From: Pseudomonas sp. B21-056
Lineage (GTDB): Bacteria > Pseudomonadota > Gammaproteobacteria > Pseudomonadales > Pseudomonadaceae
NCBI RefSeq assembly: GCF_026016325.1
Contig: NZ_CP087203.1
Location: 4,154,001 to 4,218,000, forward strand
Direction: 5' to 3'
DNA: 64,000 bases
The position numbers and the translations under genes are program-made. This document shows, one piece after another, positions 2,906-16,839 of this stretch. Positions within the stretch are counted from its first letter, which is position 1; every line of letters starts with the position of its first letter. The notes beneath the pieces are model-generated. The model saw only the letters and a list, made by a program, of their open reading frames with translations. It made no database searches and was not told where the DNA came from.

Positions 2906-3706
2906 ATGGACGATTTTGATGGAAGCCACCTCAAAAAATATCTGAACTCGGCCGATGAGACCTCTACGGAAATTTTGGCAGCAAAGCCTGGAATTTTATT
3001 GCTTGCCGGTGAATGCGTAGAATTGATCCAAGGACTGATTCAATCCTGTGAGATAAACCTCGCAGCAAGATCACTAGCGGCAAACTCTCTATTTGTCTAT
3101 CTGGCAGGTATCCGCATCGCCTTGTCGGGACACCCCGCAGCGGTATCAATTCCTCTGCGAACGTCGTTGGAATCGGCCTGCTATGCCTTGTTGGTTGTGC
3201 GTAACGAAAGCTTAGTGAACACATGGCTGTGTAGGCATAGAAGTGAAAAGGATCTTAAGGCTCAAAAAAAGGCCTTTGCAGCAGCGGTACCCACGGCAGC
3301 TGCATTTATAGAGAAAATTGATTCTGATGCGGCGATGCTAATCAAGGCGTTGTATGAGGCCGCTATAGATTTTGGAGGTCATCCCAACCCCAGAGCTATG
3401 CAGGGGCACGTGATGGTCAACGAAAGCAATGACGAATTAATCGACTTTGGATGTTTATACGGTTGGGGGACTTATACGGGCGGAAGTCTTACTCAATGTG
3501 TCGAATTTGGAATCGCCATTGCCGTCCTCTTAGCCGCAACCGTCGAGGATCATCCGTTATTTCGACCTTCTAGTACCGTGCTGGGAGAGCTAATGAGGCG
3601 CAAAAATGAATTTGCTGAGCAGATAAACGGCTCCCCTATTCAATACGGTGAAGATATGTACAACAAACTAGACCCAGTCTGGAAGCCACTCTTTAAACCC
3701 GATTAA
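2906..3706 (+). CDS. hypothetical prophage cargo protein A2
   Basis: A 266-residue, mostly helical protein that I do not recognise with confidence. The frame opens at a GTG at 2822, but the ATG at 2906, after CAGAGAACAAAA, gives a protein that does not overlap cargo gene A1 and begins MDDFDGSHLKKY. A segment RTSLESACYALLVV resembles the helical cores of DUF5677-type proteins, a weak similarity. The last codons (Phe-Lys-Pro-Asp-stop) lie inside the 20-bp element at 3691-3710 that recurs beside the two other cargo loci. Low GC suggests horizontal gain. Confidence 0.6.
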   Translation: MDDFDGSHLKKYLNSADETSTEILAAKPGILLLAGECVELIQGLIQSCEINLAARSLAANSLFVYLAGIRIALSGHPAAVSIPLRTSLESACYALLVVRNESLVNTWLCRHRSEKDLKAQKKAFAAAVPTAAAFIEKIDSDAAMLIKALYEAAIDFGGHPNPRAMQGHVMVNESNDELIDFGCLYGWGTYTGGSLTQCVEFGIAIAVLLAATVEDHPLFRPSSTVLGELMRRKNEFAEQINGSPIQYGEDMYNKLDPVWKPLFKPD

Positions 3707-3710
3707 AAGC
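3691..3710 (+). promoter_or_regulatory. 20-bp conserved palindromic element, copy 1 (upstream of the I-like protease)
   Basis: CTTTAAACCCGATTAAAAGC. The same 20-mer with at most two changes occurs at 9691 and 16820, always in this orientation, directly to the right of a cargo locus and 31 to 76 bases before a phage structural gene. Its arms (CTTTnAA and TTnAAAG around five bases) form an interrupted palindrome, like a dimeric activator site. Mu has the C-activated late promoter P-I at this place, before gene I. I see no clear -10 box. Role is inferred. Confidence 0.6.
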
Positions 3711-3765
3711 CCTAGGCCACGCATTCGTCCAGTCTGTGCGCATCACCTCCACGCAGCGCACAGCC

Positions 3766-4785
3766 ATGAAACCACTGCACATCTTCAAACCCGGCACGCA
3801 CACCGCCATGAGCGGCGCCAGCTTCGAATTCAGCGAATCCGACCTGGCCGCAACCGTAGCCGCGTATGACCCGGCGCTGCACGAAGCCCCGATGGTCATC
3901 GGCCACCCCAAGCACGACGCGCCGGCCGCCGGTTGGATCAAGTCACTGACTGCCACCGCCCAAGGCCTGATCGCCGAGCCGCAGCAGGTCGACGCCGCCT
4001 TCGCCGAGCAGGTGGCCAAGGGCAGCTACAAAAAAATCTCCGCCTCCTTCTACCACCCCGACGCCGCCAACAACCCGGCGCCCGGCGTGTATTACCTGCG
4101 CCACGTCGGCTTTCTCGGCGCCCAACCGCCGGCCGTGAAGGGCCTGCGCCCCATTGAACTGGCCGACGGCGAGGAAGGCGTTATCGAGTTCGGCGATTAC
4201 GGCCACGAACTCAACTCCGACATGTGGCGCCGTTTCCGCGAATGGCTGATCGGCAAATTCGACAAAGAAACAGCCGACCAGGTGTCCCCATCGTGGGCCA
4301 TCGACAGCCTCGCCGAAATCGCCCGGCAACCCGAGCAAACCCAACAAACCGCTTTCGCTGAACCCACCCGCGCCGCCGAGGAACCCGTCGTGAACGAGCA
4401 AGAAAAAGCCGCCCTGGAGGCGGAGAACAAACGCCTGAAAGCTGACATCGCCAAGCGTGACAAGGCCGCCCGCGAATCGGCCCAGGAAAAGATCCACGCC
4501 GCGAATGTCGAGTACGCCGAACAACTGGTCGCGGTGGGCATGAAGCCGGTTCACGCCCCGGTTGTGATTGCCGCCCTGGACTACGCCGACTCCAGCGAAA
4601 CCCCGTTGGAGTTCGGCGAAGAGGACGCCCGCGAGCCGTTGAGCGACGGCCTGAAGGCGATCTTTAGCGACCTGGCCGGCGGCGTGAGCTTCGCCGAGGT
4701 GGCTACCAAGTCCCGGGCCGGCAAGGCCGTCAACGAATCCACCAACCCCCTGCTGGCTGACGCTGAAGCCCGCGCCCAACGATAG
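3766..4785 (+). CDS. Mu I-like prohead protease / scaffold protein
   Basis: A 339-residue protein of the Mu-like prophage I family, a capsid maturation protease with a C-terminal scaffold. The N-terminus MKPLHIFKPGTH, the segment GSYKKISASFYHP (residues about 87-99, containing the candidate nucleophile serine) and HVGFLGAQPPAVKGL fit the family. Residues about 215-255 are a charged coiled coil rich in Glu and Lys, suitable for the scaffold. A GTG at 3736 would add ten residues, but the ATG at 3766 gives the family-like start. It follows element copy 1 by 55 bases. Confidence 0.87.
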   Translation: MKPLHIFKPGTHTAMSGASFEFSESDLAATVAAYDPALHEAPMVIGHPKHDAPAAGWIKSLTATAQGLIAEPQQVDAAFAEQVAKGSYKKISASFYHPDAANNPAPGVYYLRHVGFLGAQPPAVKGLRPIELADGEEGVIEFGDYGHELNSDMWRRFREWLIGKFDKETADQVSPSWAIDSLAEIARQPEQTQQTAFAEPTRAAEEPVVNEQEKAALEAENKRLKADIAKRDKAARESAQEKIHAANVEYAEQLVAVGMKPVHAPVVIAALDYADSSETPLEFGEEDAREPLSDGLKAIFSDLAGGVSFAEVATKSRAGKAVNESTNPLLADAEARAQR

Positions 4786-4793
4786 GAGGCCCC

Positions 4794-5162
4794 ATGGCCA
4801 CGTTTAACCAGCCCAAAGACTTGGGCGATTTGCTGCTGGTCGAGGTCAGCCCCGGCTGGACCAAGGAAAAAGCAACGCTGCTGGCCGGAACTGACTACCC
4901 GCTCGGGCAAGTGCTGGCCAAGGTGTCCGGCAAGTATCAGGTGCTCGATCCAGCCGGCGCTGACGGGGCCGAAAAGGCGGCGGCCGTGCTGGGCGAACCC
5001 GTTGACGCAACAGCGGGCGATAAGCCCGGCGTAGTCATCGCACGCGGCGCCGTTGTAGCGCTTGCCGAACTCGCATGGCCGGCCGGGATCACCGAGCCCC
5101 AAAAAACCACCGCCCTGGACGAACTCAATGCCCTTGGCATCGTCGCCCGTGCGGCCCTCTGA
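4794..5162 (+). CDS. head decoration protein (lambda gpD-like)
   Basis: A 122-residue protein matching the lambda D-like head decoration family, trimers of which stabilise expanded capsids. It begins MATFNQPKDLGDLLLVEV and has the alternating Gly/Ala-rich beta pattern (VLGEPVDATAGDKPGVVIARGAVV is the recognisable core, residues about 65-90). The start is preceded by AGGAGGCCC. It lies 8 bases after the protease and 14 before the major capsid gene, a standard protease-decoration-capsid arrangement that differs from Mu itself, which lacks a D protein. Confidence 0.85.
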   Translation: MATFNQPKDLGDLLLVEVSPGWTKEKATLLAGTDYPLGQVLAKVSGKYQVLDPAGADGAEKAAAVLGEPVDATAGDKPGVVIARGAVVALAELAWPAGITEPQKTTALDELNALGIVARAAL

Positions 5163-5176
5163 GTCAGGAGTACCCC

Positions 5177-6157
5177 ATGAATCTGCAAGATATGTTCAGC
5201 GTCGCCAACCTCACCGCCGCCGTTAACAAACTCCCGGCGATCCCCGGCAAAGTCGGCGCCATGGGCTTGTTCGAAGAAAAAGGCGTGACCAGCACCAGCG
5301 TTGTCATCGACGAACGCGAGGGCCGCCTGGTGCTGGTGCCCAACACTTCGCGCAATGACGACCCCGCACCCGTCAAAGGCGGCAAGCGCAAGCGCCGCAG
5401 CTTCGAAACCCTGCACCTCCCGGTAAGCCGGCCGATCCTGCCGAGCCAGTTGCAGGGCATTGCCGCGTTCGGCCAGGAAAGCACCACCGCGCCGGTAGCC
5501 GCCGTGATCAACGACAACCTGCAGGAGCTGAAAAACAGCGTCGAAGCCACCCGCGAATTTCAACGGGTCGGCGCATTGCGGGGCAAGCTGCTGGACGCGG
5601 ACGGCTCGGTGCTGTTCGACCTGTTTGACGAGTTTAACGTTGAGCAAAAGAAAATCACGGTGGCGCTCGGCAACGCCGGGACCAACGTGCGCAAGGCCTG
5701 CCTGGATGCAAAGCGCTACGCCGAGTCCAAACTGGGCGGCGTGATGGTCACCGGGTTCCGCTCTTTTTGCGGGCCGGACTGGTTCGACGCCTTCACCGAT
5801 CACGCGAAGGTCAAGGACGCTTTTGCGCACTACCAGGAAGCCCAAGACCGTATCGGCGGCGATATGCGTTCCGGCTTCACCTTCGGCGGCATCGAATTCA
5901 TCGAGTACGACGTTACCGTCAGCGGCCAACGTTTCATTCCGGCCGACATCGCTCAAGTGTTCCCGATGGCCCGTGGCGTGTTCCGTATGTTCAACGCCCC
6001 GGCCAACTACAACGAAACGGTCAACACGTTAGGGCAGCCGTTCTACAGCAAGGCCGAGGAACGCAAGATGGGCAAAGGCTGGGACCTGGAAGCCCAGGCA
6101 AACCCGTTGGCCATGTGCCTGTTCCCAGAAGCCCTGGTCGAGATGAAGGCAGGCTGA
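5177..6157 (+). CDS. major capsid protein, lambda gpE family
   Basis: A 326-residue protein of the phage major capsid protein E family, the shell subunit with an HK97-type fold. Family signals include MNLQDMFSVANLTAAVNKLP at the N-terminus, the GKRKRRSFETLHLP loop, and the C-terminal EERKMGKGWDLEAQANPLA. The frame extends upstream to 5075, but CAGGAG at 5165-5170 places the start at the ATG at 5177. Pairing with a D-like decoration protein shows a lambda-type shell inside a Mu-type genome. Confidence 0.9.
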   Translation: MNLQDMFSVANLTAAVNKLPAIPGKVGAMGLFEEKGVTSTSVVIDEREGRLVLVPNTSRNDDPAPVKGGKRKRRSFETLHLPVSRPILPSQLQGIAAFGQESTTAPVAAVINDNLQELKNSVEATREFQRVGALRGKLLDADGSVLFDLFDEFNVEQKKITVALGNAGTNVRKACLDAKRYAESKLGGVMVTGFRSFCGPDWFDAFTDHAKVKDAFAHYQEAQDRIGGDMRSGFTFGGIEFIEYDVTVSGQRFIPADIAQVFPMARGVFRMFNAPANYNETVNTLGQPFYSKAEERKMGKGWDLEAQANPLAMCLFPEALVEMKAG

Positions 6158-6160
6158 CCC

Positions 6161-6592
6161 ATGCGCTACTGCACCCGCGCCGACATCGGTAACGCCATCC
6201 CGGAGATGACACTAATTCAGCTCTCCAACGATGATCCGGCCGCCATGTCACCCAACGAGAACGTGATCGAGGACGGCGTGCGGCAGGCGGAAGAGCTGGT
6301 GGATGGCTACCTTCGGGGCCGCTACAACCTACCGCTCGATCCGGTGCCGACCGTTTTGCGAGATGCGGTGGTCTACCTGGCACGGCATTGGTTGTACCAG
6401 CGTCGCCCCGAGGGCGCGTTGCCCGACGCGGTGAAGGACAGCCGCAAGGACACTGTCAAGCTGTTGGAGAGCATTCGCGACGGCGTTGTCACCTTGGGCA
6501 TGCCCTCGGGCCACGCCGCGCCGGAACCGGGCGAGATTCGCGTTCGTGCACGCCGCCAGCAGTTCGGCCGCGATCTTTGGGAGCGGTATTGA
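6161..6592 (+). CDS. Mu gp36-like head-tail connector (DUF1320)
   Basis: A 143-residue protein of the DUF1320 family (Mu gp36), probably an adaptor at the head-tail joint. It starts MRYCTRADIGNAIPEMTLIQL and carries the typical EELVDGYLRGRYNLPLDP segment followed by a helix containing YLARHWLY. It follows the capsid gene by 3 bases and its stop overlaps the next start (TGATG), suggesting coupled translation. Confidence 0.88.
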   Translation: MRYCTRADIGNAIPEMTLIQLSNDDPAAMSPNENVIEDGVRQAEELVDGYLRGRYNLPLDPVPTVLRDAVVYLARHWLYQRRPEGALPDAVKDSRKDTVKLLESIRDGVVTLGMPSGHAAPEPGEIRVRARRQQFGRDLWERY

Positions 6593-7074
6593 TGATTCCA
6601 CCCAAAACCCAAACCGAGCAGCTGCTCGATGCAATCCGTAACCGCCTGCAGGAGCACTTCGGCAACGGGCTGACGGTCGAGCTGTTCCCCGAGAACCCGG
6701 CGGGATATCGCCTGAATCACCCACGTGGGGCGATCTTGCTGGCTTACGGGAAATCGACCTTCGGCGGCTCCGAGGCCGGCGACTCGATGTTCCAGGCACG
6801 CAACATTGTCCTCCGATTGACCCTGGTGTTTCGCCAGCTCAACGGCAAGGACGGCGTGATCAGCTACCTCGACCAGATCCGCGCCTGCCTGACGGGATGG
6901 TTCGCGCCGCACTGTGATCAGGCCTGTCGGCCCGTAGCCGAGCAGTTTATTGGCCAGGTAGCCGGCCTTTGGCAATACGGCCAGGACTACGCCATTCGCG
7001 CCACTCAATTGCAGACCATGGCGCCCGCCGGCGGGCCTCCGCTTTCTCAAACTCGTTTCGAGGACAACTCATGA
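6592..7074 (+). CDS. gp37-like phage protein (tail terminator/connector)
   Basis: A 160-residue protein resembling the Gp37 family found after DUF1320 in Mu-like phages, which probably acts in tail termination or head-tail joining. The ATG at 6592 overlaps the preceding stop and gives MIPPKTQTEQLLDAIRNRL. A central beta segment (ARNIVLRLTLVFRQLNG) and FIGQVAGLWQYGQDYAI near the C-terminus are typical. The longer upstream frame is discarded because it overlaps the DUF1320 gene throughout. Confidence 0.78.
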   Translation: MIPPKTQTEQLLDAIRNRLQEHFGNGLTVELFPENPAGYRLNHPRGAILLAYGKSTFGGSEAGDSMFQARNIVLRLTLVFRQLNGKDGVISYLDQIRACLTGWFAPHCDQACRPVAEQFIGQVAGLWQYGQDYAIRATQLQTMAPAGGPPLSQTRFEDNS

Positions 7075-7322
7075 ACCTTACCCGCTACATCTACTCCGGC
7101 CCGCAAAGCGCCGCCTCCCTGCGGGTAGGCGACAAGCGCGAGCTGTTCGAAGCGCTGTTGCTCCCAGGGAAATCGGTGGAGCTGCCCGCTGACCACGAAT
7201 ACACCCAGGTATTGATCTCGCTCAAGCACCTGGCGCCGGCGCCGCCAGTTTCTGCGCCCGTAAGTCCGGCCGTGACCGAACCCTCCGAAACCAAAAAAGG
7301 AGCGAAACCCAATGGCAGCTAA
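7071..7322 (+). CDS. Mu gp38-like protein (DUF2635)
   Basis: An 83-residue protein with the N-terminal beta-rich core seen in DUF2635 (Mu gp38), position-conserved just before the tail sheath gene. The ATG at 7071 overlaps the end of the gp37-like gene (CTCATGA). The C-terminal 30 residues are Pro/Ala-rich and end in a basic tail (KKGAKPNGS), and the last codons overlap the sheath start by 11 bases. Its function in the virion is not established. Confidence 0.78.
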   Translation: MNLTRYIYSGPQSAASLRVGDKRELFEALLLPGKSVELPADHEYTQVLISLKHLAPAPPVSAPVSPAVTEPSETKKGAKPNGS

Positions 7323-8736
7323 TTATTTGCACGGGATTGAAACAATCGAAGTCGAACGCGGCCCTCGGGCTATTCAAGTGGTCAAGTCGGCAGTTATCGC
7401 CCTGGTCGGCACGGCGCCTATTGGCCCGGTCAACGAACTGACTTTGTCGCAGAACGATGCCGACGCCGCCCAGTTCGGTTCCCATCTCACCGGCTTCAGC
7501 ATTCCGGAAGCCTTGGAGGGCATCTACGACTTCGGCGCCGGCACGGTGCTGGTGGTCAACGTGCTCGATCCGGCTATTCACCGCACCAACGTGGCCGGCC
7601 AGGTGAAACAGTTCGGGGACAACGACCTGCTGCAGTTGGAACACGGCGCCCTGCAATCGCTGCAATTGAAGGCGGTTGAGGGAGTTGATGCGTATGTCCC
7701 GGACGTGGACTACACGGTGACCCTGCTCACCGGACGGGTGAAGCGCTTGGCTACAGGAAGTATCCCCGCCAACGCCCAAGTGTCAGCAGACTATACCTAC
7801 GCGGACCCAAGCAAGGTCACGCCCGCAGAGATCATTGGTGGCGTCACCATCGCCGGCCGACGTACTGGCCTGAAGGCGTTCCAGGACAGCTACAACCTGC
7901 TGGGCTTCTTCCCGAAGATCTTCACCGCGCCGGGGTTCAGTACGTTGAATTCGGTGAGCGTCGAGTTGATCGCCTCGGCCGAACAAGTCAGCGGCGTGGC
8001 TTACATCGACGCCCCAATCGGCACCACCGTTCAACAAGTCATCGCCGGGCGCGGCCCGGCCGGCGCTATCAACTTCAACACCAGCAGTGATCGTGTCCGC
8101 CTGTGCTACCCACACGTTAAGGTCTATGACGCCACGACCAACGGCGAGCGCCTGCAACCGCTTTCGATCCGGGCCGCCGGCCTGAGGGCCAAAGTCGATA
8201 ACGACAGCGGGTATTGGTGGAGCAGTTCCAACCAGGAGCTGATGGGCGTGATTGGCCTGGAGCGCCCATTGACGGCGCGGGTCGACGACCCGAACAGCGA
8301 GGTCAACCTGCTCAACGAAAACGGCATCACCACGGTGTTCAATTCGTTCGGCACCGGCCTGCGGCTTTGGGGCAACCGCACGGCGGCGTGGCCGACCGTG
8401 ACCCATATGCGCAACTTCGAGAATGTTCGGCGTACGAAGGACGTCGCAGACGAGTCGATCCGCTATAGCGCGCTGCAGTTCGTGGACATGCCCGTCAGCG
8501 AGTCGTTGCTTACCAGTATCACCGAAAGCGTCAATTTGTATTTCCGCAAATTGATCGGCGACGGCGCGCTGCTCGGGGGCGAATGCTGGTACGACCCGGC
8601 CCGTAACCCGCAAACCGAGTTGGAGCTGGGGCACGTTCTGTTCAACTACAAACTGGGCGTTCCGGTGCCGTTTGAGCGCGGCACCTTCGAAACTGAAATC
8701 ACCGGGGAATACCTGGTCAACTTGGGGGCCGCATAA
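7312..8736 (+). CDS. contractile tail sheath protein (Mu gpL-like)
   Basis: A 474-residue tail sheath protein. It starts MAANYLHGIETIEVERGPR and contains the sheath core with AVIALVGTAPIGP (residues about 25-37) and the C-terminal handshake region ENVRRTKDVADESIRYSALQ. The sheath contracts to drive the tube through the host envelope. It directly precedes the tube gene (no gap), the usual order of contractile-tail phages. GAAAGGAG-like signal (AAAAGGAGCG) lies before the start. Confidence 0.93.
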   Translation: MAANYLHGIETIEVERGPRAIQVVKSAVIALVGTAPIGPVNELTLSQNDADAAQFGSHLTGFSIPEALEGIYDFGAGTVLVVNVLDPAIHRTNVAGQVKQFGDNDLLQLEHGALQSLQLKAVEGVDAYVPDVDYTVTLLTGRVKRLATGSIPANAQVSADYTYADPSKVTPAEIIGGVTIAGRRTGLKAFQDSYNLLGFFPKIFTAPGFSTLNSVSVELIASAEQVSGVAYIDAPIGTTVQQVIAGRGPAGAINFNTSSDRVRLCYPHVKVYDATTNGERLQPLSIRAAGLRAKVDNDSGYWWSSSNQELMGVIGLERPLTARVDDPNSEVNLLNENGITTVFNSFGTGLRLWGNRTAAWPTVTHMRNFENVRRTKDVADESIRYSALQFVDMPVSESLLTSITESVNLYFRKLIGDGALLGGECWYDPARNPQTELELGHVLFNYKLGVPVPFERGTFETEITGEYLVNLGAA

Positions 8737-9261
8737 ATGCCAGGCTTTAGCGCACACCGCATTTCCAACGCCAATATCTACCTCGACGGCACCAGCTTCT
8801 TCGGCAAGTCCGAGGAGATCGACCTGGGCTCGATCAAGACAGTCATGAGCGACTTCCAGGGGCTCGGCATGGTCGGCTTGATCGAGTTGCCGGACGGCAT
8901 CGACAAGCTGGAGGGGAAAATTACCTGGAACAGCCTGTATTTCGAAGCGGCCAAGAAGCTGGTCACGCCGTTCAAAAGCGTGCAGTTGCAGTGCCGCTCC
9001 AACGTGCAGGTATTCAACAGCGCGGGGTTGGTTGACGAGATCCCGTTGGTCACGACCATGACCATTACGGGCAAAGAGTACCAACTAGGCAGCCACAAGC
9101 CCCGAGACCCGACCAAATACGAGACGCCATTCTCCGCCACTTATGTTCGTCAGATCCTCAACGGTGAGGAGGTGGTGTTGCTGGATTACCTGGCCAATAT
9201 CTTCCGCGTGGGCGGCGAGGATCAGTTGTCCAAATACAGGCGGAATATCGGGCAGGCATAA
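8737..9261 (+). CDS. tail tube protein (P2 FII family)
   Basis: A 174-residue protein of the phage major tail tube family of P2 FII type. It has KYETPFSATYVRQILNGEEV (residues about 127-146) and the preceding ITGKEYQLGSHKPRDP, both typical. It polymerises inside the sheath as the inner tube. It starts at the base after the sheath stop and is followed by an intrinsic terminator, which ends the head/sheath/tube transcription unit here. Confidence 0.92.
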   Translation: MPGFSAHRISNANIYLDGTSFFGKSEEIDLGSIKTVMSDFQGLGMVGLIELPDGIDKLEGKITWNSLYFEAAKKLVTPFKSVQLQCRSNVQVFNSAGLVDEIPLVTTMTITGKEYQLGSHKPRDPTKYETPFSATYVRQILNGEEVVLLDYLANIFRVGGEDQLSKYRRNIGQA

Positions 9262-9266
9262 AAGCG

Positions 9267-9303
9267 AAAGGGCAGCGAACCTTGCGGTTGACTGCCTTTT
9301 TTG
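9267..9303 (+). terminator. intrinsic terminator after the tail tube gene
   Basis: The stem is formed by AAAGGGCAG and CTGCCTTTT with an inner AACC-TTGC-GGTT hairpin, followed by a run of six T. It lies 6 bases after the tube stop and directly before the stop of the convergent gene at 9304-9615, so it ends the tube transcript and may also end the reverse gene. It marks a transcription-unit boundary inside the late genes. Confidence 0.8.
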
Positions 9304-9615
9304 TTACTCCGAAATTGCGTTAGGTACCGAGTTGTAGAGCTTCAGAGTCTGCAGCGTAGCGACGTAATAGCCACCTTTTTCCCTAACGTAATTTTCCGCT
9401 TCTAGCCATTTGAGCAAGCTCTTAAGCACTTCTTCCTCAGGGGTATTGTCATAGAATCCCATAAGCAGAGGGCCGCCTCTCTCTGCCTTATACTCGCCCT
9501 TCGGAAGCCCGAATGTCTCAGCGGTAATCTGTACCGGCACGGGGCAGGCGTTCACCAACAGCGCCAGGATCTTTCCAGTCAATAGATTGAATTGTTCTTT
9601 GTTGTCGACACTCAT
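9304..9615 (-). CDS. hypothetical prophage cargo protein B, possible winged-helix fold
   Basis: A 103-residue protein on the strand opposite to all virion genes around it. The start at 9615 is chosen because AAGGAG lies nine bases upstream; the longer frame to 9648 has no such site. The pattern of an N-terminal helix bundle, then LLKWLEAENYVREKGGYYVATLQTLKLYN, looks like the recognition helix and wing of small winged-helix proteins, but this is only suggestive. Lower GC, opposite strand, and position between tube and chaperone mark it as a moron-type insertion. Confidence 0.65.
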   Translation of the reverse strand: MSVDNKEQFNLLTGKILALLVNACPVPVQITAETFGLPKGEYKAERGGPLLMGFYDNTPEEEVLKSLLKWLEAENYVREKGGYYVATLQTLKLYNSVPNAISE

Positions 9616-9690
9616 ATTCGCCTTCTCCTTGGGATAAAAAAACGTCATCGAGCGCCTGATGTTAGGGCAATTTTCCGAGGCGCGCAGTCT

Positions 9691-9710
9691 CTTTAAAGTC
9701 GATTAAAAGC
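9691..9710 (+). promoter_or_regulatory. 20-bp conserved palindromic element, copy 2 (upstream of the tail chaperone)
   Basis: CTTTAAAGTCGATTAAAAGC, identical to copy 1 except at the two central bases. It lies between the reverse-strand cargo gene (start 9615) and the tail assembly chaperone (start 9787). Because the tube unit ends in a terminator at 9267-9303, the tail genes to the right need their own promoter, and this element is the only conserved signal in the 76 bases before them. Promoter function is inferred. Confidence 0.6.
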
Positions 9711-9786
9711 AAGCGCCACGGCCAGGTGCGAAGCTCAGGGCTCTCGAAGAGCAACCGATCATATCGATCAACCTGGAGCTATTGAA

Positions 9787-10104
9787 ATGGCCGACGCCCT
9801 CAGTTTTACCCTCAATTTTCCCTTCAAAAGTGCCAGCGGCGAGTTGATCTCGAAGCTGCCTATCAAACGCCTGAAACGAAAAGACATCAGCGCCGCGCAG
9901 GGCGCCGTCAAAGGCGACGAAGGCGCCATGGAAGACATGCTCGTGGCAAAAATGTTGGGCATCACGCTGGAGGACCTCGGGGAGTTCGATATCGCGGATT
10001 CGAAACTAGCCACCGAGGTGTTGCGGGAAATGGCTAACGGGGGAGACATTGCTGCGCTCTTGGGACGAGGCGCTGCTGCTGGTATTGAGGCTGCAACCGT
10101 CTGA
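9787..10104 (+). CDS. tail assembly chaperone, short form (Mu gp41/P2 gpE-like)
   Basis: A 105-residue protein of the tail assembly chaperone family (E/41/14 group), which binds the tape measure during tail assembly. It has the usual basic LPIKRLKRKDI motif (residues about 25-35) after an N-terminal beta hairpin, and helices LAKMLGITLEDL. It sits between tube and tape measure as expected. The frame contains GGGGGA at 10039-10044, and an overlapping frame runs on to 10204, so it probably also yields a longer frameshifted product. Confidence 0.85.
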   Translation: MADALSFTLNFPFKSASGELISKLPIKRLKRKDISAAQGAVKGDEGAMEDMLVAKMLGITLEDLGEFDIADSKLATEVLREMANGGDIAALLGRGAAAGIEAATV

Positions 10105-10443: not shown

Positions 10444-13053
10444 ATGGCTAACGAAGTTCTGGTCGGATTGAAAATTGGCGCCGTCGTCTCGGGCAGCCTG
10501 AACGCGGCCTTCGGTTCCGCCAAGTCCACCGTTCAGCAGCTAGGGCGCGCCACGGATGGGCTCACCGCCAAGCAAAAGCAGATGGGCGCCGAACTGGCGG
10601 CATCCCTGGCGCGCGGCGGTAGCGGCATCGAACGGATGCGCCGTCAGTATGACCAGGTCGGCCGAACGATCGAACAGCTCAAGGGCAAACAGGAACGCCT
10701 CAACACCAGCATTGCCCGAGGCGAAGCCCTGAAATCCAAACGCGGCGAGCTGCGTAGCCAGGCTATGGAGACTGCCGGTACGGCCGCCGTCCTCGGCGCG
10801 CCTGTGGTTCAGTCGATGCGCACTGCTATCGACTTTCAGGACCAGACTCGGGACATTGCCATCACCGGAGGCTTCGACGAGGCGGAGGAAACACGCCTCA
10901 GTAACGTGATGCGGGGCGCGGCGCTGCGGTGGAACCAGACGCAAACCGACGTGGCAAACGGCACCGCAGTGTTAATCGCCGGCGGGATCTCAAGCGCAAA
11001 AGAGCTGGCGGCATACGCGCCCGTTATGGCCAAGGCGGCTACCGCAACCCGCGCAAGCATGGACGATCTCGGATCGGTGGCCATCGCCCTCAATGACAAC
11101 CTGGGCATCGGTGCCGCCGGCCTGGAGCGCTCCATGAATATGCTGGCGTTTGCCGGCAAAAGCGGCCAGTTCGAATTGGCGGACATGGCTAAATGGCTGC
11201 CACAACTCACCCCTCAATTCGCCGCGCTGGGCATCACAGGGGAACGCGCCGTCGCGGAAATTGGGGCATCGCTTCAAATCGCCCGCCGGGGGGCCGGCAG
11301 CAACGACGAGGCCGCCAACAACTTCAAAAACTTCCTTTCCAAGCTTACCGCGCCTGAAACACTGAAAGCATTTGAGAAGGCCGGCATCGATCTTAAAGGC
11401 AGTATGAAGAATCTGGTCAGTCAGGGATTATCGCCCGCTGAGTCGATGATAAAAATCCTGACAAAACACTTGGGCACCAAAGCGCCGGCTGCTGCCGCTG
11501 AATATGGGAAGGCCCTTGAAATTAAGGATGACCAGGAACGCCAGATAGCTTTGTCTCGACTTGATGAGGCTTACAAACTCGGCGAGTTGTTCGCGGATCA
11601 ACAGGTTCTGTCCTTCATTCGACCTGCGCTGGCCAATCAAAAAGACCTCAATAACATCCAGAGTGGCAGTAAGAACGCCGCCGATAAGGGCGTGCTCGAT
11701 GAGGATTGGGCAAAGCGTATGGGCAGCTCCAAAGAGCAGCTCAAGGCACTACGAATCAATCTCTCTGATATTGGGATATCTGTAGGCAACGCGTTGTTGC
11801 CCGCTCTGGTGGACGTGAGCAAGGCCGTTGTTCCCCTGATGCAATCGTTCGCCGCCTGGGCCGGTGAAAACCCCGCGATCATCAAAGGCGTCGTCGGCCT
11901 GGTAGGCGGCCTGTTGCTGGGCAAACTGGCCTTCATCGGCGTCGCTTACGGGGCCAATCTGGTTCTATCGCCGATCACTGCAATGAGCACCACCATCACC
12001 ACGCTCTCTGCCAAATGGACTCTATTGCGTGCCATGTGGCAGGCCGGCAGATTTGCCCCCCTTGTCAGTGGCCTCGGCAAAGGAGCCCGGGCGATGCGGG
12101 CCGTAGGCAACGCCGCGAGCTGGCTCGGCCGTGCGGCTTTCAATGACTTGCGCAGCGGCATGCAGGCCGCCGGGCGCGGCGCGGCATGGCTGGCCCGTGG
12201 CGGCATGATGTTGGGCAGAGTGCTCGGCGGGCAGCTGCTGATGGGGTTGCGCCTGGTCGGCCAAGCCGTGTTGTGGATTGGCCGCGCCCTGATGATGAAC
12301 CCCATCGGGTTGATCATCACCGGCATCGCGGTAGCGGCTTACCTGATCTACCGCTATTGGGAGCCAATCAAGGGCTTCTTCGCGGGCCTATGGACTGAGG
12401 TCAAAGCGGGATTCAGCGGCGGGTTATCGGGCATCGCGGGTTTGATCGTCAACTTTTCCCCGGCCGGCCTTTTCTACAGGGCATTTGCCGGCGTGATGAG
12501 TTACTTCGGCATTGAGCTGCCGGGCAAATTCAGTGAGTTCGGCGGCATGATCATCAGCGGCCTGGTCAACGGCATCAGCAACGCGCTGGTCTCAGCAAAG
12601 GATACGGTTGTCGGCGTCGGGACCTCAATCAAGGGGTGGTTCACCGAAACGCTGGGCATCCAGTCGCCGAGCCGGGTTTTCATGGGTTATGGCGCGAATA
12701 TCAGCGAAGGCGCGGCTATTGGAATCGCCTCCCAAGCTGACCTGGTGCGCAAAGCCGCGCTGGGCATGGCCGCCCAATCCGCCGTCAACATGGCGCCGCC
12801 GAACCCGGCCGACGTTTCCAGAGCGAGCATGCTCAGCGGCGCCTCGGGCGCGGGCCCCGGCGGCGCGCCCGGCGCGGGCGGCGTGCAGTTTCACTTTTCC
12901 CCGCAAATCACTGTCCCCGGCGGCGCAGGGGTGCAGGAGCAAGTTGCCCAGAGCCTGCAGGCCGGTTACGCCGACTTTGTGCGGTTCATGGAGCGCTACC
13001 AACACGACAAGAAACGCCGCAGCTACGGCCCAGCGGATGGGGGGCTAGCCTGA
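10444..13053 (+). CDS. tail tape measure protein
   Basis: An 869-residue tape measure protein. It has the N-terminal coiled coil (residues 1-110), the conserved TIGR01760-type region around residues 130-330 (AGKSGQFELADMAKWLPQL), hydrophobic segments near 475-510 and 610-640 (GLIITGIAVAAYLIYRYW), and a Gly/Ala-rich tail. It sets tail length and helps DNA entry. The stop overlaps the next start (CTGATG). No gap or frameshift is seen. Confidence 0.92.
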   Translation: MANEVLVGLKIGAVVSGSLNAAFGSAKSTVQQLGRATDGLTAKQKQMGAELAASLARGGSGIERMRRQYDQVGRTIEQLKGKQERLNTSIARGEALKSKRGELRSQAMETAGTAAVLGAPVVQSMRTAIDFQDQTRDIAITGGFDEAEETRLSNVMRGAALRWNQTQTDVANGTAVLIAGGISSAKELAAYAPVMAKAATATRASMDDLGSVAIALNDNLGIGAAGLERSMNMLAFAGKSGQFELADMAKWLPQLTPQFAALGITGERAVAEIGASLQIARRGAGSNDEAANNFKNFLSKLTAPETLKAFEKAGIDLKGSMKNLVSQGLSPAESMIKILTKHLGTKAPAAAAEYGKALEIKDDQERQIALSRLDEAYKLGELFADQQVLSFIRPALANQKDLNNIQSGSKNAADKGVLDEDWAKRMGSSKEQLKALRINLSDIGISVGNALLPALVDVSKAVVPLMQSFAAWAGENPAIIKGVVGLVGGLLLGKLAFIGVAYGANLVLSPITAMSTTITTLSAKWTLLRAMWQAGRFAPLVSGLGKGARAMRAVGNAASWLGRAAFNDLRSGMQAAGRGAAWLARGGMMLGRVLGGQLLMGLRLVGQAVLWIGRALMMNPIGLIITGIAVAAYLIYRYWEPIKGFFAGLWTEVKAGFSGGLSGIAGLIVNFSPAGLFYRAFAGVMSYFGIELPGKFSEFGGMIISGLVNGISNALVSAKDTVVGVGTSIKGWFTETLGIQSPSRVFMGYGANISEGAAIGIASQADLVRKAALGMAAQSAVNMAPPNPADVSRASMLSGASGAGPGGAPGAGGVQFHFSPQITVPGGAGVQEQVAQSLQAGYADFVRFMERYQHDKKRRSYGPADGGLA

Positions 13054-13934
13054 TGTTTGCCATTTTGGGCGATATCGAATTTACCGTGGCGGGCGGCATT
13101 AGCGGCATGGAGCAAAGCGGCTCGGCCGACTGGGCCGAACATTCGCGGATCCAGGGCAAGCCATTGTTGGAATGGATCGGCGAAGGACTGGATCAGTGCA
13201 ATCTGACGATTGAGCTGCACCCGGTGCTTGGCGACCCTGAGGAGCGCCTGCGGGCGCTGCGCCGGGCCAAGAGCAAGCACGAGCCGCTGGCTTTCGTCAT
13301 GGGCAGCGGCGAGTACCTGGGCGCTTATGTCATCCGCGAAATCAGCAACGCCATTCGCCGTTCTACGGCCGTAGGACAGATCAACGCCGCTACCGTACAG
13401 GTCAGCCTCGCTGAATACACGGGCGCCTTTACCCGCAAGACGCTCCGGCCGGGCCTGCTCGATTCAGCCCTGACCGGCACCCCGGCTGCGGCGGCCGGAT
13501 CGCCGGGGCTTATCTCGCGTCTGATGCCATCGCCCAGCGTCACGCAAATGGTAATCGGCCACGCTAAAACGGCCGGCAACATGCTCAGGGCCGGCCAAAA
13601 CCTGTACGAGACGGTCAAGAGCGGCAACGCCTCCATGATCCTTGGGCAGGTTCCGCAGTTGCTGGGCGTCACGGCGCGGGCCATTGAGCCGCTGCAGGGC
13701 CTGACCGCCGCCGCAGGGCTACTCAATGACGGCTCAGACTTGGCGCGCCTCGGCGAAGACGTGCTCGGCAGCGTGACGGGCGCCCGCAGCAGTTTGAACC
13801 CGGTCGACCTGGGCAACATCGTGGATCGCTTCTCCGCTTCGCGGGATTCCCTTGACCAGGCGCTCACCAAAATGGACGGCGCCGGAACCCGCTTAGCGGG
13901 CCTGGCCGCCCAAGTCTTGACCCGGAGGGCCTAA
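13053..13934 (+). CDS. Mu gpN-like DNA circularisation / baseplate protein
   Basis: A 293-residue protein resembling the Mu gpN family (DNA circularisation N-terminal domain), a component of the tail tip. In Mu this gene follows the tape measure, as here, with a one-base overlap. The C-terminal half is helical and Ala/Leu-rich. Its stop overlaps the tail-X start (TAATG), so translation of tape measure, gpN and X is probably coupled. Confidence 0.75.
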   Translation: MFAILGDIEFTVAGGISGMEQSGSADWAEHSRIQGKPLLEWIGEGLDQCNLTIELHPVLGDPEERLRALRRAKSKHEPLAFVMGSGEYLGAYVIREISNAIRRSTAVGQINAATVQVSLAEYTGAFTRKTLRPGLLDSALTGTPAAAAGSPGLISRLMPSPSVTQMVIGHAKTAGNMLRAGQNLYETVKSGNASMILGQVPQLLGVTARAIEPLQGLTAAAGLLNDGSDLARLGEDVLGSVTGARSSLNPVDLGNIVDRFSASRDSLDQALTKMDGAGTRLAGLAAQVLTRRA

Positions 13935-14140
13935 TGTTTATTCCCCATATCACCGTTGAGGGCGAACGTTGGGACCAGTTGGCCTGGCGCTACTACGGCG
14001 ACCCTCACCGGTACCAGCCCATTGTCGAAGCCAACAAGCACGTGCCTATCACCGCCGCGCTCCCCGCCGGGTTGACGCTGGCCATCCCCGTGCTTGAACC
14101 CGCGACGTCCACCGAGGATCTGCCGCCATGGATGCGATGA
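13934..14140 (+). CDS. tail protein X (LysM-like)
   Basis: A 68-residue P2 gpX-like protein with the LysM-type pattern VEGERWDQLAWRYYGDPHRY then PIVEANKHV. Such proteins are small baseplate or tail-tip components with possible peptidoglycan affinity. It overlaps both neighbours (gpN stop and gpD start), a P2-type X-D pair placed where Mu has gene P. Confidence 0.88.
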   Translation: MFIPHITVEGERWDQLAWRYYGDPHRYQPIVEANKHVPITAALPAGLTLAIPVLEPATSTEDLPPWMR

Positions 14141-15240
14141 CCCCGGAGCAAGTGCCGGAAGCGCGCTTCGTACTGACCTACCAACAACGCAATATCACCC
14201 GCAATATCAGCGAACACTTGCTCTCGCTGACCTATTCGGACTTCCTGACCGGCGAGGCGGACAGCCTGGATGTCGAGCTGGAAGATACCGAAGGCAAATG
14301 GCGGGACGCGTGGTATCCCGGACACGGGGATTCGCTGACCTTGGCAATCGGCTGGGAGGGAAAGCCGTTGCGCAACGTGGGCCGCTTTGAGATCGATGAG
14401 ATCGAATTAAGGTGCCCACCTTCGACGATCAACATTCGAGCCCTCGCCACCGGGATCAACGCCGCGTTGCGCACGACTGAGCACCGCGCCTATGAGAACA
14501 CCACCCTGGACGCGGTGGCCAAGCAGATTGCCGCCAGGCAGGGGCTTGAGTTGGTCGGCAGCATCGAGCCGATCAAGCTGGACCGGCTGACGCAACAAGA
14601 GTCAGACCTGACCTTTTTGCGCAACCTAGCCGGGGAATACGACTACGCCTTTAAGGTCACCGGCAGCCGTCTGGTCTTTCACGCCATCAGCGAGCTGGCT
14701 AAAGGCGCCCCGGTGGCCACGCAGGTGCTTCAGGACTTGGCGAACGTCAATTTGCGCGACCAGATCCGGGACGTGCCGAAGGCCGTCGAGGTCAAACACA
14801 AAGACCCGACACAGAAAAAGTTGATCGCCTACACCGTGGAAAATGGCGAGACGGTTGCCGTGCCGAGCAGCGCTGGTAAAAGCACCACCAGCGGCGACAC
14901 CAAAAAGAAACGCAAGCGCAGCGCCTCGGCTGAAGAATCCAAAGCGAAAGCCAAGGCTGAGCTGGCCCAGGCTAACCGCGAGCGTACCAGGGGCGGCTGG
15001 ACAACCATGGGCCGGCCGAACCTGGTCAGCGGCAACGTAGTGACCCTGGTTGCCGCTGGCAAGCTTGGCGGCAACTATCTGATCACGTCGTCACAACACC
15101 GGATGACCCGAAGCGGCGGCTATACCGTGGACAAAGAGGTCTGCCGCGTTTCGGCGCCGTCGATCTCGTTGACTTTGGAAAACACCCAGCCGGATCTGGC
15201 CTTGTCGACCTACGGCGTTCAGCACGAAGTGGTGGCCTGA
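14128..15240 (+). CDS. baseplate hub protein, P2 gpD / late control D family
   Basis: A 370-residue protein of the late control gene D family (T4 gp27/VgrG hub fold), forming the ring between tube and spike. Recognisable parts are EADSLDVELEDTEGKW near residue 45, the YENTTLDAVAKQIAARQGL segment and QQESDLTFLRNLAGEYDY. A Lys/Ser-rich loop (about residues 245-285) is inserted. It starts within the end of gene X (13-base overlap). Confidence 0.88.
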   Translation: MDAMTPEQVPEARFVLTYQQRNITRNISEHLLSLTYSDFLTGEADSLDVELEDTEGKWRDAWYPGHGDSLTLAIGWEGKPLRNVGRFEIDEIELRCPPSTINIRALATGINAALRTTEHRAYENTTLDAVAKQIAARQGLELVGSIEPIKLDRLTQQESDLTFLRNLAGEYDYAFKVTGSRLVFHAISELAKGAPVATQVLQDLANVNLRDQIRDVPKAVEVKHKDPTQKKLIAYTVENGETVAVPSSAGKSTTSGDTKKKRKRSASAEESKAKAKAELAQANRERTRGGWTTMGRPNLVSGNVVTLVAAGKLGGNYLITSSQHRMTRSGGYTVDKEVCRVSAPSISLTLENTQPDLALSTYGVQHEVVA

Positions 15241-15257
15241 TATGAGGGATTACGCGC

Positions 15258-15791
15258 ATGGGCGTTGAATTGGAGTACGGCGAGGTCAGTGCCGTGGATT
15301 ACGTGACCTGCCGCATTCGGGTGCGCCTGGATGAACGCGACGGCGTTGAGAGCTATTGGCTCAACGTGCCCCAGCGCAACACCCAAGGGACGCAGCGCCG
15401 GCCGCTGATGCCGGAATTGAACGAGCAAGTTGCGGTGCTGCTCGATGCCGATGGAGTGGGCGGCGTGTACTTGGGTGGGGTGTACTCAACGGCTGAACCG
15501 CCGCCCGTAATCGACGAGGATACAGATTATGTGCGGTTCAGCGATGGGACGGTTTCGATGTACGACCGTGTGGCCGGGGTGATGACGTTGGACTGCGTGG
15601 GGGCTTTGCTGCTGAAGTGTGCCCGGAACATCACAGTGGAGTCAGGCGAGCCGGTGGTGGTGAAAGCGCCTTCGGCTACGTTGGAGATCCCGCAGGTGGC
15701 CTTGAATGGCAACCTGCAGGTCAACGGAGATATCAACGCTACAGGCACAATCATAGACGCTGGCGGGAATTCGAATCATCACAGCCATTAG
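15258..15791 (+). CDS. baseplate assembly protein V, central spike
   Basis: A 177-residue gpV-like spike protein. The N-terminal OB-fold (residues about 8-80) precedes a beta-helical part with NGNLQVNGDINATGTIIDAG. The C-terminus ends NSNHHSH, where paired histidines at the tip bind a metal ion in P2 gpV and phi92 gp138, making the membrane-piercing apex. It follows the hub by 17 bases; its end is only 8 bases from the stop of the reverse-strand cargo gene. Confidence 0.9.
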   Translation: MGVELEYGEVSAVDYVTCRIRVRLDERDGVESYWLNVPQRNTQGTQRRPLMPELNEQVAVLLDADGVGGVYLGGVYSTAEPPPVIDEDTDYVRFSDGTVSMYDRVAGVMTLDCVGALLLKCARNITVESGEPVVVKAPSATLEIPQVALNGNLQVNGDINATGTIIDAGGNSNHHSH

Positions 15792-15799
15792 AGGACAAT

Positions 15800-16798
15800 T
15801 TACAATGGGGAGCTCTTACCAATTTTACCGCTGTTGAGCAAAAACAGGTCTCCACTAAGATCGACGTTTTTCGTGTACAAATTTTGAACCTCAGATAGCA
15901 CCTTTACACTGAATAATGATTCGTCACACAGCTCAGAAACTCGAAGGCCTGAGGAAAAAACCGCGAACGCGAGCCCTATCGATCTACCGCCCACATCAGC
16001 TCTAACCATGCCTGAGACCTGCAAATCGCCAAAGCCAGGAGCGCCAAAATCAGCAGGAAAGCCCAGAGTCACCGAGGGGCACTCAGCGGTTATCATACAT
16101 TCGCCCATAGCCCCATCACCAAAGTCGTAAGTGGATTGGTGCATAAGCAACATCACACAAAGGACGATGTTAGGTTGCTGTTCTAAGACTGCTCTCTCAT
16201 CAAAATTCAATTTATTGAGCCGTAGGACGGCAATTAACTCTCTCATCAGTTCATCGGCCGTGAACGCCGGGTAAGTGTTAAAACCTATCAGATGCTGAAT
16301 TGCCGCGAGTTTTACCTCGCTCAAAGCATGGTGCTGAAGCATTGTGGTTTTGCTTTTCTTGTCATCTTTGAAGAGGTTGTCAATCCAAGATTCAAGGCGC
16401 GTCTGGGTGACGTTGAATTTTTCCCTAAGCTCTTCCGCTTTAAACCTATAGACGTGAAGCTTCAGCATTTTTTTTATGTAAATTGGCGCTGGTTTTGATA
16501 GGTCTAGCGGCCGATTCATATGGCCATACGAGGCGTAAAATTTGAAGCTTAGGTGGAGAGCCTCAAGGGCCTCATTGACCAGTCCCTTATTCCTTGCGTC
16601 GTTATGTGCAACGAAATCAGCAGCCTCACGAAATACCCGAAAACCACCAGAGTAGGCGCGAAGCCGCATAAAAATATTGTCGATGTCATTCTCGTCAAAA
16701 TTTCCTCCTTGAATTTTGTCGAGCACTTTCTGCGCCTTCATTTTTTCGTTAGCTTTCATAGCTATCTCAGTCCGTATGGGATCGCTAGAGTTTGCCAT
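15800..16798 (-). CDS. hypothetical prophage cargo protein C
   Basis: A 332-residue protein on the reverse strand, not recognised. I chose the ATG at 16798 (upstream GCAGAGAGCC); a GTG at 16819 would add seven residues and run to the edge of the conserved 20-bp element. The N-terminal two thirds are helical, with a KFNVTQTRLESWIDNLF stretch that could be a helix-turn-helix; the last 130 residues look beta-rich. Low GC, opposite orientation, and insertion between V and W fit a lysogenic-conversion or defence gene, but there is no direct evidence of function. Confidence 0.65.
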   Translation of the reverse strand: MANSSDPIRTEIAMKANEKMKAQKVLDKIQGGNFDENDIDNIFMRLRAYSGGFRVFREAADFVAHNDARNKGLVNEALEALHLSFKFYASYGHMNRPLDLSKPAPIYIKKMLKLHVYRFKAEELREKFNVTQTRLESWIDNLFKDDKKSKTTMLQHHALSEVKLAAIQHLIGFNTYPAFTADELMRELIAVLRLNKLNFDERAVLEQQPNIVLCVMLLMHQSTYDFGDGAMGECMITAECPSVTLGFPADFGAPGFGDLQVSGMVRADVGGRSIGLAFAVFSSGLRVSELCDESLFSVKVLSEVQNLYTKNVDLSGDLFLLNSGKIGKSSPL

Positions 16799-16819
16799 GC
16801 AGGGGCTCTCTGCGGGCAC

Positions 16820-16839
16820 CTTTAAACTCGATTAAAAGC
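16820..16839 (+). promoter_or_regulatory. 20-bp conserved palindromic element, copy 3 (upstream of baseplate W)
   Basis: CTTTAAACTCGATTAAAAGC, one base different from copy 1 (C to T at position 9). It lies between the start of reverse-strand cargo gene C and the W gene, 31 bases before the W start codon. Like the other copies it is followed by a GCCAC within about ten bases. It could serve the W-J-I-fibre unit; function is inferred from position and conservation. Confidence 0.6.

What the first reader, a model, noticed from the sequence alone, without database searches (positions are those of the whole stretch)
3691..16839. A 20-bp imperfect palindrome repeated three times at late-gene boundaries, always next to a cargo locus
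CTTTAAA[CG][CT]CGATTAAAAGC occurs at 3691, 9691 and 16820 in the same orientation. Three copies of a 20-mer with only two variable positions in 13 kb of otherwise unrelated sequence cannot be chance. Each is directly right of an unknown cargo locus and 31 to 76 bases left of a virion gene (I, chaperone, W). Copy 1 is where Mu has promoter P-I, activated by C at an interrupted palindrome, and copy 2 follows a terminator. I infer activator-dependent late promoters, with cargo genes accumulating just upstream where they do not disturb the operons. The alternative is a recombination or insertion site for cargo.
Basis: partly seen in the sequence, partly recalled or inferred. Interest (0 to 1): 0.75.

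Follow-up and report, generated by a model that had tools for sequence, protein, structure and literature searches.

The report
Shared late-gene switches flanking phage cargo
The repeated 20-letter motif is most likely the landing site of the phage's own late-gene activator, forming four matched promoters in a Mu-like prophage; in the relatives examined, nearly all large inserts between the lysis and tail-fibre genes sit just upstream of such promoters.

Summary
Confirmed and extended. The motif occurs three times in the window (0 in 100 shuffles) and once more 5.1 kb to its left, before the lysis genes; no other match in the genome. It is a 16-bp dyad, TTTAA-N6-TTAAA, with a -10-like element at fixed distance (A and T each in 122 of 125 contexts) and no evident -35: the layout published for Mor at Mu Pm. 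A Mor-family gene closes the leftward early operon. Loci picked by protein, not by motif, keep it with and without cargo (gp46: 17 of 17 and 50 of 50; I: 26 of 26 and 20 of 20), so it is not an insertion scar. Mor-selected phages that lack sets of the 20-mer mostly keep a looser dyad plus -10 (17 of 18, controls 0). Among 28 late junctions, gaps over 450 bp fall at the three promoter junctions, with one exception. Cargo families are site-specific; several resemble defence genes. New: gp46 starts at the predicted +1 (leaderless?), and cargo-free gp46 promoters often enclose a terminator-like hairpin. Function in vivo is inferred. Known promoter type, new variant.

The parts
3691..3710 (+). Copy 1: activator-site motif of the late promoter before gene I; dyad TTTAA-N6-TTAAA at 3692-3707
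3730..3735 (+). -10-like element CAGTCT of copy 1 (predicted +1 near 3742)
   Evidence: position by conservation across 125 contexts; inferred
3736..4785 (+). Gene I, head maturation protease (ATG at 3766 begins the part shared with most relatives)
   Evidence: PHROG 976 E 1.8e-117; relatives' matches begin at residue 8-11 in many loci
2421..2840 (+). Cargo gene at the G|I junction, no family hit
2822..3706 (+). Cargo gene at the G|I junction; PHROG 36906 (unknown function); its stop codon lies inside the motif
9262..9312 (+). Terminator-like hairpin directly after the tail tube gene M
   Evidence: -19.8 kcal/mol, z -3.18; the simple scan did not report it
9304..9648 (-). Cargo gene at the M|gp41 junction; PHROG 2266 (unknown function)
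9691..9710 (+). Copy 2: activator-site motif of the late promoter before gp41; dyad at 9692-9707
9730..9735 (+). -10-like element GAAGCT of copy 2
   Evidence: inferred
9787..10104 (+). gp41, tail protein in the position of the tail assembly chaperone
   Evidence: PHROG 166 E 1.5e-15
15800..16819 (-). Cargo gene at the gp45|gp46 junction, divergent from gp46; probable ATG start at 16798; PHROG 29586 (unknown function)
16820..16839 (+). Copy 3: activator-site motif of the late promoter before gp46; dyad at 16821-16836
16859..16864 (+). -10-like element CATCAT of copy 3; predicted +1 at 16871
   Evidence: inferred
16871..17248 (+). gp46 (W), baseplate wedge subunit; its ATG coincides with the predicted +1
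   Evidence: PHROG 43 E 6.3e-30; start 51 bp from the motif start in 46 of 53 loci of the junction survey and 62 of 67 protein-selected loci

Best explanation
The motif is the binding site (16-bp dyad TTTAA-N6-TTAAA) of the prophage's single Mor/C-family activator. With a -10-like element 22 bp past the dyad and no evident -35, it makes four late promoters, before lys, I, gp41 and gp46. The activator gene is the last gene of the leftward early operon, so late transcription would follow early transcription directly (inferred). A dimer centred near -42.5 would recruit host RNA polymerase (inferred from Mu Mor). The promoters mark the ends of late transcription units. There, and almost nowhere else between lysis and tail-fibre genes, extra genes are found, and they are exchanged site by site. 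Shown here: sequence architecture, conservation, gene order, co-occurrence and cargo distribution. Inferred: binding, activation, +1 and timing.
For: Four same-strand copies and no other in the genome. A at offset 40 and T at offset 44 each in 122 of 125 distinct contexts, and 97-100% within each of the four downstream classes. 135 of 138 exact sites (not deduplicated, own four included) precede lys (35), I (27), gp41 (29) or gp46 (44). Mor-family gene, PF08765 E 3.7e-41, the only one found in the genome. Of 298 same-genus genomes, all 10 with four or more motif matches hold a Mor homologue at E 5.9e-23 or better. Selection by Mor protein: of 21 viral records of at least 20 kb with Mor 76% identical or more, all 21 have a 20-mer match (2 mismatches allowed) and 19 have two or more; of 18 such records with Mor 56-74%, 5 have one match and none more, but 17 of 18 carry the looser promoter pattern YTAA-N6-TTAA-N24-A-N3-T, 37 sites, one strand per record, control 0; the aligned recognition-helix stretch reads V-S-(L/I)-Q-W in all of them. 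Same pattern: window 3 (0.03 expected), Komp_PAO1_1 4 (0), PhiKM 6 (0.05), KP12 3 (0.05). Selection by protein: all 67 gp46 loci and all 46 I loci kept have the motif at 20 bits or more, with or without cargo. Mu Mor: two 5-bp inverted repeats with a 6-bp spacer in 16 bp, centred -43.5, no -35 (PMC4390567 abstract and passages; PMC4287176 passages).
Against: No transcription start, binding or expression data. Motif and Mor lie in the same phages, so co-occurrence is partly shared descent. Mor identity does not order the 20-mer simply: Pseudomonas prophages with Mor only 36-43% identical have it, while other phages with Mor 56-74% identical have the looser form. 9 of 24 genomes with a 0-1 mismatch motif have no Mor hit (not followed up). 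G225 has a Mor homologue and no motif, but the frame read there lacks a recognisable DNA-binding end. Relatives are not independent. The -10 elements match TATAAT weakly; the gp41 class has T at the predicted +1. Cargo at unit boundaries may simply reflect that most other junctions overlap or nearly abut. In another Mu-like phage, JBD26, the moron tab lies between the terminase genes, not at such a boundary (PMC10884400 passages).
Confidence: 0.9

Rival explanations
1. The motif is an insertion or recombination site (or scar) through which cargo genes enter.
For: Motif adjacent to cargo in this prophage; near-identical copies could serve as homology.
Against: Cargo-free loci chosen by protein keep the motif: 17 of 17 at gp46, 26 of 26 at I. 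No cargo cluster occurs at two of the three sites surveyed among 136 ORFs (the lys site was not in that survey). A fixed -10 spacing is not expected of an insertion site.
Confidence: 0.04
2. The motif is an operator of a phage repressor or another regulator, not a Mor/C site.
For: Palindromic; another DNA-binding protein (HTH repressor-like) is encoded in the left arm.
Against: It occupies the activator position of a promoter without -35, the dyad geometry equals the published Mor site, and phages picked by Mor keep the dyad core and -10 spacing. No copies elsewhere in the left arm.
Confidence: 0.05
3. The motif is the promoter of the divergent cargo genes rather than of the late genes.
For: [quoted passage not shown]
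Against: Conservation runs rightwards to -10 and +1, and leftwards for only 3 bases; the motif is present without cargo and with plus-strand cargo.
Confidence: 0.03
4. The 20-mer itself works as RNA, as part of a terminator.
For: In many cargo-free gp46 promoters the motif's AAAAGC forms the 5' arm of a hairpin with a T-rich tail.
Against: The hairpin is weak or absent at many sites while the 20-mer stays; it can be an added function only.
Confidence: 0.03

Closest known systems
Phage Mu Mor-dependent middle promoter Pm and C-dependent late promoters (Plys, PI, PP, Pmom)
   Same: Mor-family activator; two 5-bp inverted repeats with 6-bp spacer in 16 bp; no -35; centre near -43; promoters before lys and I (PMC4390567 abstract and passages, PMC4287176 passages; promoter names from the latter)
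   Different: Different dyad sequence (TTTAA/TTAAA); one Mor-family gene instead of two; promoters before gp41 and gp46 instead of P and mom; early operon runs leftward; cargo at the promoter junctions
B3-like Pseudomonas phages (Fc02)
   Same: Leftward early operon ending in mor, three rightward late clusters, some accessory genes in each cluster (PMC9936078 section 3.2 read)
   Different: No convincing copy of this motif; a different shared element TTTTNGCNYCTTCCAAAA stands before holin, protease and tape measure genes
Anti-CRISPR locus of Mu-like Pseudomonas phages
   Same: Variable cargo between the gpG homologue and the head protease/scaffold gene, i.e. the same G|I junction (PMC4704812 passage)
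   Different: Not linked there to a late-promoter motif in the passages seen; for D3112-like phages the flanks of variable regions were reported to show no common recombinase target (PMC4378225 passage)
Phage morons
   Same: Accessory genes between core genes of related phages (definition in PMC4378225 passage)
   Different: Here the places coincide with one regulatory element and the cargo sets are site-specific

Membership tests
Mor/C-activated promoter (Mu type) | Gene for a Mor/C-family activator in the same phage | tested here: met
   PF08765 E 3.7e-41, PHROG 532 late transcriptional activator E 4.7e-40
Mor/C-activated promoter (Mu type) | 16-bp dyad of two 5-bp inverted repeats with a 6-bp spacer | tested here: met
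   TTTAA-N6-TTAAA in all three window copies and the fourth; published geometry
Mor/C-activated promoter (Mu type) | GC-rich hexanucleotide spacer (as reported for Pm) | tested here: inconclusive
   Spacers ACCCGA, AGTCGA, ACTCGA: 4, 3 and 3 of 6 G/C
Mor/C-activated promoter (Mu type) | -10 hexamer but no -35, dyad centred near -43.5 | tested here: met
   A and T at two -10 positions in 122 of 125 each; centre -42.5 if +1 is at offset 51; +1 itself inferred
Mor/C-activated promoter (Mu type) | Activator binds the dyad and is required for transcription | not testable with these tools
   needs footprinting, reporter and mor deletion
Mu late promoter set | Promoters at lys, I, P and mom | tested here: not met
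   lys and I yes; here gp41 and gp46 instead of P and mom; hence a variant set
Insertion/attachment site | Motif absent where cargo is absent, or flanking cargo on both sides | tested here: not met
   (motif present without cargo); only one copy per junction in this prophage

The most novel reading that the evidence does not exclude
The late promoters are composite insulated ports: within about 51 bp the gp46 promoter combines the activator dyad, a terminator-like hairpin for incoming upstream transcripts folded into the spacer between dyad and -10, and a start codon at +1 (a leaderless late mRNA). Such insulation would let prophage-expressed defence-type cargo collect at just these places without switching on late genes, and at gp46 the hairpin decays once cargo separates the units. 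(Odds lowered from 0.35 to 0.3 after the protein-selected control showed no hairpin-cargo link at the I promoter.)
Probability: 0.3. Interest if true: 0.65.

Novelty: new variant of a known kind. Interest (0 to 1): 0.52.

Why it matters
It gives a sequence tag that predicts the late-regulation map and the cargo sites of a large group of Pseudomonas Mu-like phages, and a looser form of it that reaches further relatives. Reading leftwards from the tag finds their accessory genes, several of which look like defence or toxin genes. It also offers a simple model of how one Mor-type activator can run a two-step early-to-late programme, and where temperate phages can store extra genes without disturbing virion operons. 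The leaderless gp46 start and the hairpin inside the promoter are directly testable.

Tried and rejected
Insertion-scar and cargo-shuffling readings: tested and rejected. Because the first loci had been fetched by the motif itself, the finding that cargo-free junctions keep it was partly built in; I repeated it on loci fetched by gp46, I and Mor protein, and it held. Bidirectional use of the motif: no conservation at the mirrored -10 position. Simple promoter/terminator scans of the three cargo stretches gave nothing clearly above shuffles (2 and 2 found against 1.3 and 1.3; 0). A terminator between gp45 and the convergent cargo gene in the window: not found. Spacer hairpin at other promoters: at I p 0.09 and no link at all in the protein-selected set (6 of 26 against 4 of 20, p 1.0); at gp41 p 0.08. 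At gp46 5 of 15 cargo-free sites lack a strong hairpin and 2 of 38 cargo sites have one; in the protein-selected, overlapping set 7 of 17 lack it and 5 of 50 have it. Strong copies of the motif in Mu, Bise and Fc02: none convincing. Papers: the two Mu late-promoter papers looked up are not held. Listings of searches for prior description of the motif or of a late-promoter/cargo link in Mu-like phages showed none, but most listed papers were not opened and most subscription papers are not in the library, so this is weak. The C-site sequence of Mu is not used as evidence.
Full report
Observation. The 20-mer is at 3691, 9691 and 16820 on the + strand, with no further match at 3 mismatches in the window and none in 100 shuffles. 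In the whole genome there is one more copy, at 4148920 (window start 4154001), again + strand, and the reversed control finds none. The fourth copy stands before the endolysin gene (L005:14971-15519, PHROG 873 endolysin). Offsets below are counted from the first base of the motif as 0.

Distribution. With the four own sites there are 138 exact sites, not deduplicated; 44 precede gp46, 35 lys, 29 gp41 and 27 I. Three have no anchor gene: L014 ends at the motif; L021 and L060 look like chance. Among 298 same-genus genomes 58 have a match at up to 2 mismatches and 10 have four or more; single matches elsewhere were not examined. Outside the genus, 1 of 143 other genomes of the order has a match at 1 mismatch. 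In the named genome collection 37 of 40 stretches are Pseudomonas (narrower pattern), so the host genus is Pseudomonas by inference.

Promoter anatomy. Aligned without gaps on 125 distinct contexts (10 duplicates and 3 edge sites dropped), conservation beyond the 20-mer is strongest at A40 and T44 (122 of 125 each); C50 has 111. Within each class A40 and T44 are at 97-100%. I read this as a -10 element NANNNT at 39-44, so +1 is expected near 51 and the dyad centre (8.5) at about -42.5; no -35 is evident. The published Mu Mor site is two 5-bp inverted repeats with a 6-bp spacer, 16 bp in all, centred at -43.5 and replacing the -35 (PMC4390567 abstract and passages; PMC4287176 passages). The geometry matches closely.

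Activator. L005:4092-4502 (-) is a Mor-family protein, the only one found in the genome, at the end of a leftward run of genes that includes the transposase genes (transposase names by likeness, not by search). In 298 genomes, 16 have a Mor homologue at E 1.6e-15 or better and 15 of these have a motif match; the exception, G225, lacks a recognisable DNA-binding end in the frame read. Eight genomes have only weaker Mor homologues, and one of these has a single 2-mismatch match. Conversely 9 of 24 genomes with a 0-1 mismatch motif have no Mor hit.

Mor-first control. Mor protein was used to fetch 57 viral records; 29 of the 57 have a 20-mer match at up to 2 mismatches. Among records of at least 20 kb, 21 of 21 with Mor 76% identical or more have a match, 19 of them two or more. 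Of 19 with lower identity, 6 have one: five have a single match and the most distant (G497, 41%) has three 2-mismatch matches. The 18 with 56-74% identity were searched with the looser promoter pattern YTAA-N6-TTAA-N24-A-N3-T: 17 of 18 have it, 37 sites, 1-4 each, always on one strand within a record, and the reversed control finds 0. In all of these the aligned Mor stretch keeps V-S-(L/I)-Q-W before I/V-Y. So the dyad core and its distance to the -10 travel with Mor, while the flanking letters differ. A complication: Pseudomonas prophages whose Mor is only 36-43% identical keep the 20-mer, so overall Mor identity does not order the motif forms simply.

Named relatives. Komp_PAO1_1 (P. aeruginosa) has four sites at the four junctions. 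PhiKM and KP12, Mor 53% identical, have sites of the looser pattern: PhiKM before the genes in the place of I, gp41, gp46 and the lysis cluster, one before a DNA adenine methylase gene, and one that is the lysis dyad read backwards; KP12 before the genes in the place of gp46, gp41 and I, none found before lysis (gene identity by annotation and order).

Cargo. Gaps between 29 late genes (28 junctions) were measured on distinct loci, most of them fetched through the motif. L171/L172 were left out as duplicates, as were loci of 1.3 kb or less, phages L148-L151, identical sequences and gaps outside -300 to 15,000 bp. Gaps over 250 bp: G|I 12 of 33 (678-10,260 bp), M|gp41 33 of 38, gp45|gp46 38 of 53; gp41|TMP 31 of 45 but nearly constant at about 340 bp (at most 438; probably the chaperone frameshift region, recalled from Mu); holin|Rz 3 of 43 (at most 270); one each of 274, 275 and 515 bp at DUF2635|L, TMP|N and gp48|fibre; the remaining 20 junctions none. 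Over 450 bp: 12, 26 and 32 at the three promoter junctions and 1 elsewhere. The motif scores 20 bits or more in 123 of 124 of these junction loci; L173 scores 11.4.

Protein-first control. Loci fetched by gp46 (best 80 of 143; 8 without upstream anchor and 5 duplicates dropped, 67 kept) have the motif at 20 bits or more in 17 of 17 cargo-free and 50 of 50 cargo-bearing cases. Loci fetched by I (70; 19 and 5 dropped, 46 kept) have it in 26 of 26 and 20 of 20. Many of these contigs are also, but here the motif played no part in choosing. For scale, the best score in the whole Fc02 genome is 4.1 and in Mu 17.9. So the motif does not depend on cargo.

Nature of cargo. Clusters never span two of the three sites (136 ORFs of 60 aa or more). 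The longest ORF of 100 aa or more is on the minus strand in 22 of 24 loci at gp46, 19 of 25 at gp41 and 6 of 12 at I. At lys, all ORFs of 80 aa or more in 25 loci are on the + strand behind the repressor, like the repc-e4 lysogenic transcript of Fc02 (PMC9936078 section 3.2). Of 20 cargo proteins scanned with Pfam (chosen from the longest and from cluster heads), 7 pass a curated cut-off: RES twice, putAbiC, Pyocin_S, DUF7380, PLDc_2, DUF4145; one of 10 scanned matches PADLOC PDC-S39 at E 1.3e-101 and one AbiP weakly. The window's own cargo genes have only PHROGs of unknown function or nothing. G|I is also where the anti-CRISPR genes of Mu-like Pseudomonas phages lie (PMC4704812 passage). Against a general rule: in JBD26 the moron tab sits between the terminase genes (PMC10884400 passages), and in D3112-like phages variable regions were mainly in the left arm, with a decoration gene between protease and major head genes (PMC4378225 section 11 and passages).

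Two further features of the gp46 promoter. First, the gp46 start lies 51 bp from the motif start in 46 of 53 loci, 52 in 6 and 48 in 1; it is ATG in 52 of 53; several early residues are nearly fixed with varying codons (P4 in 52, T8 50, I10 50, T11 53 of 53); 0 of 53 have an SD-like tetramer in the 12 nt before it. In the protein-selected loci the offset is 51 in 62 of 67 and 52 in 5. Since 51 is the expected +1, the mRNA would be leaderless. Eight of 53 have an in-frame upstream start codon, so this is not airtight. PhiKM and KP12 show the same spacing. Second, offsets 15-36 can form a hairpin followed by T's (-13.8 kcal/mol, z -3.9 in Komp_PAO1_1). It is at -10 kcal/mol or below in 10 of 15 cargo-free and 2 of 38 cargo-bearing loci (Fisher 8e-6), and in 10 of 17 and 5 of 50 in the overlapping protein-selected set (1.3e-4); neither test corrects for relatedness. 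In 14 distinct cargo-free sites 78% of cells pair, above all 2000 shuffles and above slid versions (at most 55%), with two-sided changes at three pairs; in 38 cargo sites it is 54% and 141 of 2000 shuffles reach it. At the I promoter there is no such link. I read the gp46 hairpin as a terminator for the gp45 unit built into the next promoter; termination is untested.

How it likely works. Early transcription runs left to mor (inferred from gene order and Fc02). Mor binds four dyads and recruits RNA polymerase to lys, I, gp41 and gp46 (inferred). The boundaries between these units are where inserts are tolerated; at gp41 and gp46 most point away from late transcription. Recombination through the conserved flanking genes is enough to explain exchange of cargo at a given site (inferred).

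Verdict. It works like, and by the sequence features tested belongs with, Mor/C-activated promoters; it differs from the Mu set in dyad, place of two promoters, number of activator genes and cargo association. New variant of a known kind. The odds of the main reading were left at 0.9; those of the insulated-port reading went from 0.35 to 0.3.

Noticed in passing
L148 (phage Fc02) 11702, 20100, 25607: A different element, TTTTNGCNYCTTCCAAAA, stands three times before holin, protease and tape measure genes (0.27 matches expected at 3 mismatches), probably the B3-like counterpart of this motif.
   Followed up: partly
L150 (phage PhiKM) 30817-30859 (-): A dyad plus -10 of the looser pattern lies 55 bp upstream of a DNA adenine methylase gene, reminiscent of the C-dependent Pmom of Mu.
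   Followed up: no
L005:14920-14975 and other lys-class sites: The lys promoter's -10 sits in the loop of a near-invariant inverted repeat around CGCCGCC-N6-GGCGGCG (broken in L057); possible terminator of the repressor-cargo transcript or an operator.
   Followed up: partly
window 20656-20964 and 21076-22206: A zinc-ribbon protein (Com-like by position) followed by a protein with partial ABC-ATPase matches and a C-terminal part that looks acetyltransferase-like (by eye); might be a com/mom-type pair. No motif copy precedes it.
   Followed up: no
L005:2836-3804 (-): A transposase-like gene, IS110-like by recollection and without a family search, lies just beyond mor near the prophage's left end.
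   Followed up: no
L147 (Komp_PAO1_1) 5112-7241: The record annotates a minus-strand hypothetical gene where homology places gene I on the plus strand behind the motif; likely an annotation error.
   Followed up: partly
L164, L165, L173, L174, L036, L038: Large inserts (about 4.8-10.2 kb) at the I and gp41 promoters; L164, L165, L173 and L038 proteins include AbiC-like, pyocin-like, PDC-S39, PLD and weak NACHT matches.
   Followed up: partly
window 3704-3706: The stop codon of the cargo gene at copy 1 is part of the motif itself.
   Followed up: no
viral records behind L397-L425 (G468-G496): Phages with Mor 56-74% identical show the looser dyad plus -10 in one orientation, several with tails such as AAAAGAC or AATATC after the dyad, hinting at lineage-specific promoter classes.
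   Followed up: no
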